Source: Methylococcales bacterium (GTDB lineage Bacteria; Pseudomonadota; Gammaproteobacteria; Methylococcales; Methylomonadaceae). Taken from it: a DNA stretch of 34,234 nucleotides. The stretch spans positions 1 to 34,234 of the forward strand of contig QVQD01000042.1 of assembly GCA_003584875.1 (NCBI GenBank), in the 5' to 3' direction. The notes under the pieces were generated by a model. It made no database searches. It had not been told where the DNA came from and saw nothing but the letters and a program-made list of their open reading frames with translations. Made by a program: the position numbers and the translations under genes. Of this stretch, positions 20,626 through 21,638 are shown in pieces (position 1 is the stretch's first letter; each line of letters begins with the position of its first letter).

Positions 20626-20802
20626 CTATTTTCCCTTTAGAATTTTCCATTGTTTTAAAATCTCTGCCTCTAACTCTTGTCTTGCAACTATACCTCTTTT
20701 TTCTTCTACTAAGTTTAAATATTTAATACGTTGTTGTTTTTCTGTCTTTAGCGTAGAAGTAGCCTCGCAGATTCTTCGCCATTCTTCACTATAAGTATCC
20801 AT
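20626..20802 (-). CDS. Small phage protein with SEEWRR motif (58 residues)
   Basis: Starts MDTYSEEWRRICEATSTL and continues helical and basic (QQRIKYLNLVEEKRG, LEAEILKQWK). The pattern SEEWR..CEA...R..YL..VE..RG...L..EI..QW recalls a very common small phage protein type (DUF7696 by memory). The ATG follows directly after the stop of the upstream 30-residue frame (TAAATG), and its own stop is 1 base before the next ATG. Function unknown. Confidence 0.7.
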   Translation of the reverse strand: MDTYSEEWRRICEATSTLKTEKQQRIKYLNLVEEKRGIVARQELEAEILKQWKILKGK

Positions 20803-20895
20803 TTAGATACATAAAAAAAAGATAATAACTAATGCTAATACAATAATAATTCTATCTACTAACTTCTCAAATTCTGCTATTTGTTTACTATTCAT
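20803..20895 (-). CDS. Single-pass membrane peptide (30 residues)
   Basis: The frame MNSKQIAEFEKLVDRIIIVL with the tail ALVIIFFLCI has a short charged N-terminus and one hydrophobic segment of about 17 residues. TGAGG precedes the ATG by about 5 bases and the stop abuts the next start. It follows the structured stretch at 20935-21110 by about 40 AT-rich bases. Real expression is likely but not provable from sequence. Confidence 0.5.
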   Translation of the reverse strand: MNSKQIAEFEKLVDRIIIVLALVIIFFLCI

Positions 20896-20934
20896 AAAAC
20901 CTCATAAGTATATATAAAATATATCTTCTCTTTT

Positions 20935-21110
20935 GGTGAAGACACCTAGCCATCCTAGTGTGCCTTCAAAACCTTCTCTTTCGGAGCCAGTTCACCCGAC
21001 AGTCTTTCGTTGGATCGGCACTATCTTCGCCACCGATTTATGCAGTATTACACCAACTTTCCCACAGTCTGCTTGTATCGTAACTGCTGCCGTTATCCGA
21101 CCAGTTTACG
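20935..21110 (-). ncRNA. Candidate structured RNA adjoining the HNH gene
   Basis: This stretch lacks a plausible protein frame, is visibly GC-richer than its surroundings, and folds well on the minus strand. Arms at 21102-21110 and 21079-21086 form eight pairs with one bulged A. Arms at 21031-21037 and 21014-21020 form seven pairs. The arms GGTGAA (20991-20996) and TTCACC (20935-20940) close a domain that holds a nine-pair hairpin (20960-20964 plus CTAG 20955-20958, against CTAG 20946-20949 plus 20941-20945) with loop GATGG. The first hairpin covers the stop of the HNH gene. It could be a regulatory leader for the small genes downstream or an RNA partner of the HNH protein. Strand and function are inferred. 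Confidence 0.55.
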
Positions 21111-21414
21111 ACCTAAAATCTTTAATTTTATTACCTTTAATTTTATTGCATCTTCCACATAAAGTTTGCAAATTATTTATATCTAATGCTAATTCTGGAT
21201 AAAACTTTCTAGGTTTTACATGATCAATATTTATATTTTTTGTTGAACCACAACTTAAACACTTTACACCATATTTAACTTTAGCAAGTTTTCTTAATTC
21301 TTTCCATTCTTTTGACATTAAAAAATTTTTAGGTTTAGATGCAAAAAGTTTTGACAATTCATTGTTTGATAATTTTTCAACTTTATTTCTATAAGCAATT
21401 TTAATAGAATTCAT
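21106..21414 (-). CDS. HNH endonuclease, homing-type (102 residues)
   Basis: From the ATG at 21414, which overlaps the stop of the Cro-like gene as ATGA. The C-terminal half has the full HNH zinc finger: KCLSCGS (52-55 Cys pair), NIDHVKPRKFYPEL with the catalytic His (65), LDINNLQTLCGRCNKIKG with the Asn and second Cys pair (86-89). The N-terminal half is basic and helical (SKEWKELRKLAKVKYG). It should nick or cut double-stranded DNA. Lying between a repressor gene and a structured non-coding stretch, it may be part of a mobile unit, but the coupled start argues for long residence in this operon. Confidence 0.85.
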   Translation of the reverse strand: MNSIKIAYRNKVEKLSNNELSKLFASKPKNFLMSKEWKELRKLAKVKYGVKCLSCGSTKNINIDHVKPRKFYPELALDINNLQTLCGRCNKIKGNKIKDFRS

Positions 21415-21638
21415 GCTAATTCTGGCCACACAAGGGCATAACTTTTAGGAAACATATCTTTGCGTGTTACTAAACCATGTGATTGTTTTTCTATCTGAGC
21501 TGCTAAAAATACTAATTGCCCATGTGGTATTCCTCTTGTTCGCCATTGTGTTACTGCTGGTGGAGCTACATTACACATCTTTGCTACTTGTTTAGTACCA
21601 CCCAATAATGCAATGATTTGATCATCCGTAAAATTCAT
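21411..21638 (-). CDS. Cro-like helix-turn-helix repressor
   Basis: 75 residues with ALLGGTKQVAKMCNVAPPAV followed by TQWRTRGIPHGQL, the P22 Cro/YdaS-like helix-turn-helix in which QVAKMC is the first and APPAVTQWR the recognition helix. KQSHGLVTRKDMFP and a terminal WPELA are also typical of this type. It has a good ribosome site (AAAGG). It is divergent from the early operon at 21752, the usual place for Cro in lambdoid switches. No CI-like partner or integrase was seen, so it probably tunes early expression and not lysogeny; that is inference. Confidence 0.82.
   Translation of the reverse strand: MNFTDDQIIALLGGTKQVAKMCNVAPPAVTQWRTRGIPHGQLVFLAAQIEKQSHGLVTRKDMFPKSYALVWPELA

What the first reader, a model, noticed from the sequence alone, without database searches (positions are those of the whole stretch)
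20935..21110. A GC-richer structured stretch beside an HNH endonuclease gene, possibly an undescribed RNA
About 175 bases between the HNH gene and a run of small membrane genes have no credible protein frame and differ in composition from the AT-rich surroundings. On the minus strand they fold into several stems, including an eight-pair hairpin covering the HNH stop and a nine-pair hairpin (two CTAG arms, loop GATGG) inside a GGTGAA/TTCACC closing stem. Nuclease genes paired with structured RNAs include intron, HEARO/IsrB and retron-like units, yet this one does not show group I intron core sequences I can recognise, and the 102-residue HNH protein is far smaller than IsrB. It may be a new phage RNA or a regulatory leader.
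Basis: partly seen in the sequence, partly recalled or inferred. Interest (0 to 1): 0.72.

Follow-up and report, generated by a model that had tools for sequence, protein, structure and literature searches.

The report
Phage RNA carrying one tag twice
The stretch is a real, already catalogued but unexplained RNA gene of phages and Betaproteobacteria; it is about half as long again as the catalogue shows and carries the same fast-changing eight-letter sequence in two places, which suggests that it grips one unknown partner twice.

Summary
The stretch is a genuine RNA gene but not an undescribed one. On the minus strand, 21112-20994 matches Rfam family RF02932 (Betaproteobacteria-1, an sRNA without known function) at 90.3 bits (cut-off 49.4). 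Homologues from viral contigs, Acidovorax phage AP1 and beta-proteobacterial chromosomes show that the RNA goes on about 68 nt past the Rfam model, to 20926. Covariation supports three helices missing from that model: two pseudoknots and a stem knotted with P3. The link to the HNH gene is accidental: 1 of 190 upstream flanks has it, the window's own, while 51 of 190 have the Cro-like gene. The unexpected part is in the 3' half. It carries the same 8-nt sequence twice, in a hairpin loop (R1) and in the 3' tail (R2). R differs between homologues, but the two copies change together (121 of 142 have at least 6 of 8 identical). Complements of R are not above chance in the flanks and sit at no consistent site in six phages. 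The likeliest reading is a bivalent RNA that binds one nucleic-acid partner twice, in trans; the partner is unknown. In many relatives a second structured RNA, without an Rfam match, lies just upstream.

The parts
20926..21112 (-). whole RNA (about 187 nt), member of Rfam RF02932 plus a 3' domain that the Rfam model lacks; ends inferred from conservation, not mapped
   Evidence: Rfam match; homologue alignment A1
20994..21112 (-). part covered by the Rfam model RF02932 (Betaproteobacteria-1), 90.3 bits
   Evidence: cmscan
21077..21112 (-). hairpin P1; its 5' strand contains the stop codon of the HNH gene (21106-21108)
   Evidence: Rfam structure line, MFE, covariation A34-45/A70-81
21064..21090 (-). 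pseudoknot PK1: GCAG (21090-21087, loop of P1) with CUGU (21067-21064)
   Evidence: columns 51-55/78-81 of A1: 96.8% of cells paired, 3 of 4 pairs with changes on both sides
21042..21072 (-). hairpin P2 (GCAG/CUGC)
   Evidence: Rfam structure; covariation A110-114/A146-150
21009..21057 (-). pseudoknot PK2: GUUGG (21057-21053) with CCAAC (21013-21009, loop of P3)
   Evidence: columns 93-97/137-141: all 5 pairs have changes on both sides, 81.7% paired
21014..21037 (-). helix P3a: AUCGG (21037-21033) with CCGAU (21018-21014), knotted with P3
   Evidence: columns 113-118/131-136: 92.7% paired, 3 of 6 pairs with changes on both sides; the other 3 are fixed by the search pattern
20998..21025 (-). 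helix P3: GAUAGU (21025-21020) with ACUGUC (21003-20998)
   Evidence: 98.1% paired, 2 of 6 pairs with changes on both sides
20969..20993 (-). hairpin P4 with apical loop holding box GGCUCC (20988-20983) and R1
   Evidence: Watson-Crick covariation B47-48/D28-29
20974..20981 (-). R1, AAAGAGAA, first copy of the variable 8-mer
   Evidence: identical to R2 here; concerted with R2 in homologues
20938..20966 (-). hairpin P5 (two CUAG arms, loop GAUGG)
   Evidence: MFE; present in A1
20926..20938 (-). 3' tail: box CACC (20938-20935), A, then R2 (20933-20926), AAAGAGAA, second copy of the variable 8-mer
   Evidence: the exact 8-mer occurs nowhere else in the window on either strand
21411..21638 (-). 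Cro/YdaS-like gene upstream on the same strand; the commonest upstream neighbour of the RNA that was tested
   Evidence: Pfam YdaS_toxin 4.8e-8 and P22_Cro 7e-7; homologue upstream in 51 of 190 flanks, own included
21106..21429 (-). HNH endonuclease gene, not conserved next to the RNA
   Evidence: PF01844 7.5e-11; 1 of 190 upstream flanks

Best explanation
Shown: this is a phage-borne member of Rfam RF02932, a noncoding RNA of about 187 nt lying downstream of a Cro-like gene, independent of the HNH gene. It has a core knotted by PK1, PK2 and P3a/P3, followed by two look-alike modules that carry the same 8-nt sequence R: R1 in the loop of hairpin P4 after the box GGCUCC, R2 in the 3' tail after the box CACC. 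Inferred: the core holds R1 and R2 out as two identical binding arms, and the RNA acts in trans by binding one nucleic-acid partner twice (two copies of it, or two sites in it), as an antisense or sponge RNA would; R changes between phages because the partner changes. The partner is not known. It is probably a host or competing-element RNA or DNA, because complements of R are absent from the RNA and not above chance in the phage flanks.
For: Identity. Structure: 92.6% of 1280 cells paired, covariation score 0.504 against shuffled 0.147 (sd 0.009) and slid 0.055-0.109. R1/R2: within an RNA 7.15 of 10 positions agree against 3.94 between RNAs, largest of 2000 permutations 4.47; the excess covers positions +1 to +8. 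With R2 placed by context alone, 121 of 142 unique places have at least 6 of 8 identical. On a tree built without R, the two copies change on the same branch 107 times (90 to the same base) against about 37 expected, p 0.0005 at 7 of 8 positions and 0.04 at the other. Among the 110 strongest column pairs printed, R columns couple with each other by identity and with no column by Watson-Crick pairing. Trans action fits stand-alone chromosomal copies, 1 to 4 per genome (some below the cut-off) in 15 of 15 genomes that were chosen because they hold the RNA, whose neighbours differ (by eye).
Against: No partner was found: complements of R are not enriched in the flanks (exact 14 against 14.4 expected over 87 RNAs; with G-U pairs 226 against 207 on one strand and 306 against 302 on the other over 100 RNAs), and complements in six phages occur at no consistent place (the window has none, the phage of L134 has two exact ones where shuffled R gives 1.0 on both strands together). 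R is partly complementary to the GGCUCC box (R2 x GGCUCC -3.83 against -3.32 kcal/mol after column permutation, sd 0.10), which would fit an internal switch. In phages the RNA lies in a gene run on its own strand, which also fits a cis role. Sense copies of R were somewhat commoner than expected (34 against 21.4, sd 5.0; 39 against 26 on the RNA's strand and 13 against 17 on the other), which this reading does not predict. In one search two of five measures do not exceed the shuffles clearly (pairs with a change on both sides 13 against 11.3; further pair types 42 against 41.6).
Confidence: 0.4

Rival explanations
1. Cis-acting leader: the RNA, transcribed with the genes after cro, acts on RNA polymerase or on downstream genes as a processive antiterminator (like put RNA of HK022 or EAR) or as an attenuator.
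For: It lies downstream of a Cro-like gene, on the same strand, in 51 of 190 flanks, at 7-51 nt (11), 146-171 nt (23), 291 nt (1, the window) or 725-914 nt (16); after the primase gene and before further genes of the same strand in phage AP1; no promoter-like site on its strand close upstream in the window.
Against: Only 4 of 110 phage RNAs have a terminator-like site within 220 nt downstream, and 0 of 32 chromosomal ones; chromosomal copies have unrelated downstream genes (by eye); it does not explain two concerted variable 8-mers.
Confidence: 0.25
2. Internal switch: R1 and R2 compete for the GGCUCC box, so that the RNA flips between a local P4-loop fold and a long-range fold with its own 3' tail.
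For: R2 is more complementary to GGCUCC than column-permuted R, by 5 sd; segments next to R are also repeated in both modules; GGUGG and YCACC can pair in 62 of 62, but these letters were fixed by my search patterns and filters, so this is weak.
Against: R varies at all 8 positions while GGCUCC is in 37 of 37 complete members of a set not selected for it, and positions 1-3 of R have nothing to pair with there; the R1 hairpin itself is no better than column-permuted R (-2.48 against -2.39, sd 0.10); phage AP1 lacks the box but keeps the duplicated R (by eye).
Confidence: 0.15
3. Guide RNA of an RNA-guided DNA enzyme with two loops, as in the bridge RNA of IS110 elements, here with both loops reading the same site.
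For: Two look-alike modules each with a variable guide-like 8-mer; mobile-element setting.
Against: No DEDD_Tnp_IS110 domain (PF01548) on the window contig or in 9 further phage records (several are fragments); no one gene family accompanies the RNA (the commonest neighbour cluster is in 25 of 107 loci).
Confidence: 0.07
4. The two modules are identical binding sites for one protein whose specificity drifts, so that R follows the protein.
For: Two similar stem-plus-box modules are what a dimeric RNA-binding protein would use.
Against: R differs in several of 8 bases between close relatives with similar flanks (L126, L127, L136, by eye); no protein family accompanies the RNA in phages and chromosomes alike.
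Confidence: 0.13

Closest known systems
Rfam RF02932, Betaproteobacteria-1 RNA (sRNA, no known function)
   Same: The window RNA scores 90.3 bits over the full 120-nt model; same P1, P2, P3.
   Different: The family is longer than its model: homologues and window share a 3' domain (P4 with R1, P5, tail with R2), and PK1, PK2 and P3a are not in the model's structure line as printed. The paper that I recall as its source (Weinberg 2017, NAR gkx699) is not held, so I cannot say whether it shows them.
C4 / CI antisense immunity RNAs of phages P1, P7, P4 (recalled; papers seen as a search listing only)
   Same: Phage regulatory-region RNA with short, specificity-bearing repeats; in P4 two copies of one target sequence on one transcript (recalled).
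   Different: No Rfam match to any C4 family in the window; no enriched complement of R near it.
put RNA of phage HK022 / EAR antiterminators (recalled; a paper search found none)
   Same: Structured RNA in a phage gene run after cro, two modules.
   Different: Two variable 8-mers; chromosomal stand-alone copies; terminator-like sites rarely near.
IS110 bridge RNA (recalled)
   Same: Two loops with guide-like variable segments.
   Different: No IS110 recombinase domain on the contig; both copies carry the same 8-mer.

Membership tests
Rfam RF02932 Betaproteobacteria-1 | covariance-model score above the curated gathering score | tested here: met
   90.3 bits, cut-off 49.4, model positions 1-120
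Rfam RF02932 Betaproteobacteria-1 | acts as a free sRNA (Rfam type 'Gene; sRNA') | not testable with these tools
   no expression or binding data; chromosomal copies with unrelated neighbours fit it
HEARO / IscB-IsrB omega RNA | match to the HEARO model; guide RNA beside an IscB/IsrB gene | tested here: not met
   no such Rfam match; the 107-aa protein matches general HNH families and is not conserved next to the RNA
group I intron | match to the group I intron model | tested here: not met
   no match at gathering or up to E 10 in 20800-21250
IS110 bridge RNA | DEDD_Tnp_IS110 recombinase in the same element | tested here: not met
   none on the window contig or in 9 other records; three elsewhere in the host genome bin
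C4 antisense RNA | match to the Rfam C4 model (that such a model exists is recalled) | tested here: not met
   only RF02932 at gathering
put / EAR processive antiterminator | read-through of terminators downstream of the RNA in cis | not testable with these tools
   position fits; terminator-like sites near it in 4 of 110 phage RNAs

The most novel reading that the evidence does not exclude
RF02932 RNAs are two-armed guide RNAs: a pseudoknotted core presents one re-writable 8-nt guide twice, so that one RNA molecule joins or captures two copies of the same RNA or DNA target. The guide is retuned in both arms in step as phages and islands change partners. Nothing found here excludes this, and no RNA known to me has duplicated guides that evolve in concert in this way.
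Probability: 0.2. Interest if true: 0.85.

Novelty: new member of a known kind. Interest (0 to 1): 0.58.

Why it matters
RF02932 is an orphan family. The missing third of the molecule, its three pseudoknotted helices and above all the duplicated 8-mer that evolves in concert give a concrete handle on what it does: change R1, R2 or both and see what follows. If R proves to be a guide, this is a two-armed RNA carried by many phages and by beta-proteobacterial chromosomes. The second, unlisted RNA upstream in relatives, with its own fast-changing complementary 7-mers, suggests that this region is an RNA-run control centre.

Tried and rejected
HNH partnership: rejected, not conserved. Protein frame through the stretch: rejected. 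Target-site duplication as the origin of R1/R2: rejected, because close relatives with similar flanks carry different R in both copies (L126, L127, L136, by eye). Partner of R inside the RNA: no Watson-Crick coupling among the 110 strongest pairs. Partner of R in flanks: no enrichment. Partner in whole phages: no consistent site; 8-mers were used for the window and L134's phage, 7-mers for the other four. Partner of R in the upstream RNA, 61 loci: none (longest complement 5.82 against 5.67 between RNAs, sd 0.09, for R2; 5.20 against 5.32, sd 0.09, for R1). Complement of R plus box in six Burkholderiaceae genomes: 27 places, 15 of them in the RNA genes themselves and 12 elsewhere, against 5 for the reversed control pattern; the 12 were not examined. 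IS110 bridge RNA: no recombinase. First DNA pattern: unspecific; of its 120 viral loci only L077 matched the RNA in nhmmer (L121, the other match, is the window itself). A covariance model of the longer RNA found the window RNA, which is in the model, and two hits near 20 bits in 369 genomes of the class; the two contain no recognisable core and I count them as chance.

Limits of the sets. My second search pattern and script filters demanded GGUGGCGAAG..AG.GCC and GGCUCC, and the later scripts a CACC, so the constancy of those letters in alignment A1 is by construction; in the set, not chosen for them, GGCUCC is in 37 of 37 and NCACC in 36 of 37 complete members. Rows dropped: one search kept 126 of 194 places for display; one search lost 13 of 183 places without an [ACT]CACC box (four, L153, L244, L247 and L276, look like true relatives with a changed or lost 3' part, nine like chance pattern matches) and chose R2 partly by likeness to R1, which is why one search repeated the count without that; one search dropped 1 of 107; one search kept 61 of 142 by similarity and R1-R2 spacing. 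The 142 hold the window's own locus and at least one chance match (L269, Streptomyces). In one search one of eight rows (L255) was given the wrong coordinates and is ignored.

Full report
What is there. The window is one 34,234-base contig of a 3.03-Mb genome bin and encodes a tailed phage: terminase, portal, tape-measure-like protein, ERF recombinase, exonuclease. RF02932 is in 1 of 237 genomes of the host family and 1 of 311 of the host order, the window's own each time (stricter filters), so it belongs to the phage contig and not to the host lineage. The reported stretch lies on the minus strand between an HNH gene and small genes. It is richer in G+C than its surroundings (42% against 23-33%) and its minus strand folds better than 200 of 200 shuffles.

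It is a known orphan RNA. Rfam release 15 gives exactly one hit in the window at gathering: RF02932, Betaproteobacteria-1, 21112-20994 minus, 90.3 bits, cut-off 49.4, whole model. Full-text searches of the held library found no paper with 'RF02932' or 'Betaproteobacteria-1 RNA'; one paper holds the string 'Betaproteobacteria-1', judging by its title in an unrelated sense (listing only). The source paper that I recall for the motif is not held.

It is longer than its model. A pattern from the conserved core found 39 viral stretches. With the window's own locus this gave 40 places and 31 distinct sequences; 37 are complete downstream, and all 37 have the GGCUCC box and 36 the CACC box past the Rfam end, neither demanded by that pattern. 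An alignment of 62 sequences (61 of 142 unique places plus the window) shows the whole architecture.

Structure. On that alignment four helices were counted with their own brackets: PK1, PK2, P3a and P3. 92.6% of 1280 cells pair against 73.0% (sd 0.7) after shuffling; the covariation score is 0.504 against 0.147 (sd 0.009); cells with a change on both sides are 287 against 88; sliding partners by 1 to 3 columns gives at most 0.109. Two weaker measures do not stand out (pairs with any two-sided change 13 against 11.3; further pair types 42 against 41.6). The search pattern fixed GGU/GCC of P3a and parts of P3, so the evidence rests on the other pairs. PK1, PK2 and P3a are not in the structure line of the Rfam model as printed. 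A mutual-information scan of 106 sequences, made before this alignment, had pointed to the same helices. The structure was derived from these sequences, so the slid control favours it to some degree.

The duplicated 8-mer. After GGCUCC plus one base comes R1; after CACC plus one base comes R2. In 107 sequences (93% redundancy filter) R1 and R2 agree far more within an RNA than between RNAs, and the agreement covers eight positions. That call chose the R2 site partly by likeness to R1. With the site chosen by context only, 121 of 142 unique places have at least 6 of 8 identical, 65 of them 8 of 8. Of the 12 with 3 or fewer, 9 show the same repeat shifted by a few bases (by eye) and three (L273, L307, L308) do not. 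One of the 142 (L269) is a chance match. On a tree built without R, the copies changed on the same branch 107 times, 90 times to the same base, where about 37 coincidences are expected. There are 63 different R2 sequences among those with at least 6 of 8 identical. In the window both copies read AAAGAGAA, and the 8-mer occurs nowhere else in its 34 kb on either strand. Smaller stretches next to R are repeated between the two modules as well. So the 3' half consists of two look-alike modules whose variable parts are kept alike.

What R pairs with is unknown. Among the 110 strongest column pairs none couples R to another column by Watson-Crick pairing. Complements of R are not enriched in the flanks held, up to 9 kb a side. 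In six phages (window, AP1, four contigs of 36-40 kb) they lie at no consistent site; the window has no exact complement, the phage of L134 has two where letter-shuffled R gives 1.0 (sd 1.5) on both strands together. The neighbouring upstream RNA does not match R. Sense copies are somewhat more frequent than expected (34 against 21.4, sd 5.0, four of them in second RNA genes; 39 against 26 on the RNA's strand, 13 against 17 on the other), which I cannot explain. R is partly complementary to GGCUCC, which leaves an internal switch possible; phage AP1, which keeps the repeat without that box (by eye), speaks against it.

Where the RNA lives. In phages it often follows a Cro-like gene: a homologue of the window's Cro-like protein lies upstream, on the same strand, in 51 of 190 flanks, own included and near-copies not removed. 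Clusters with a helicase (ResIII, Helicase_C) and a Toprim primase occur within 4 kb in 25 and 17 of 107 loci, mostly upstream. In the isolated Acidovorax phage AP1 it follows the primase gene in unannotated space. In Paraburkholderia, Caballeronia, Xenophilus, Thauera, Azoarcus and other genomes (record titles) there are 1 to 4 chromosomal copies each, some below the cut-off, in 15 of 15 genomes picked because they hold the RNA, beside unrelated genes (by eye). Many Burkholderia-group copies show a TATACA/TATACT-like box upstream (by eye, no test), and there R1 and R2 each sit in a small hairpin of their own (by eye).

HNH. The HNH gene ends inside P1, but its homologue is upstream of the RNA in 1 of 190 flanks (the window itself) and downstream in 3 of 188.

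A second RNA next door. In relatives that lack the HNH gene there, the space between cro and this RNA often holds another structured RNA: promoter-like boxes, a hairpin whose loop carries a 7-8-nt segment X, and a long terminator-type hairpin carrying its complement X'. A terminator-type hairpin was found in 85 of 194 loci; in 68 distinct ones the longest exact complement between the two parts averages 7.15 nt against 5.43 between RNAs (largest of 200 permutations 5.90); that longest complement is not X in every locus. X and X' change together among close relatives: ATCGAAC/GTTCGAT, CTTGAAC/GTTCAAG, CTGGAAT/ATTCCAG, CTAGAAC/GTTCTAG, CTGATAC/GTATCAG; one of the seven usable rows (L183) has a G-T pair at the end. 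Rfam has no family for it at gathering in 14 loci, 11 of which hold it, and only weak, unrelated hits in two examples. The window itself lacks it.

Judgement. Identity as RF02932 is certain for practical purposes. The longer architecture and the concerted 8-mers are well supported and were not found in print in three searches of the held library. The mechanism, a bivalent trans-acting RNA, is inference at about 0.4; a cis-acting leader or antiterminator is the main rival at about 0.25.

Noticed in passing
L206:860-1010 (+); also L184, L217, L214, L235, L181, L126, L133, L134, upstream of the RF02932 RNA: A second structured RNA without an Rfam match between cro and the RF02932 RNA in many phages: promoter-like box, hairpin with variable loop X (7-8 nt), long terminator-type hairpin carrying the complement X'. 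X and X' change together between close relatives. It could be an immunity or attenuator RNA of C4/CI type.
   Followed up: partly
L323, L324, L327, L315, L328 (chromosomal copies), downstream of R2: A box GGNUGAGCC that is the exact reverse complement of the module-2 segment GGCUCANCC in each of these five RNAs (by eye): a possible extra stem or switch in chromosomal members.
   Followed up: no
L341:3950-4160 (Acidovorax phage AP1, OM049504): An isolated phage carries the RNA (93.4 bits) in unannotated space after its primase gene; here the GGCUCC and CACC boxes are changed, but GAGCAGA still stands twice at the places of R1 and R2 (by eye).
   Followed up: partly
L286, L281, L271/L313: Two RF02932 hits 4 to 13 kb apart on the same chromosomal contig, the second one in L286 and L281 just below the cut-off; in L286 they lie either side of a 908-aa frame with an ATP-binding-like motif (by eye).
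   Followed up: no
window:19895-20164 (-): Small RecA-dependent nuclease (PF16786, E 1.6e-9) downstream of the RNA on the same strand.
   Followed up: no
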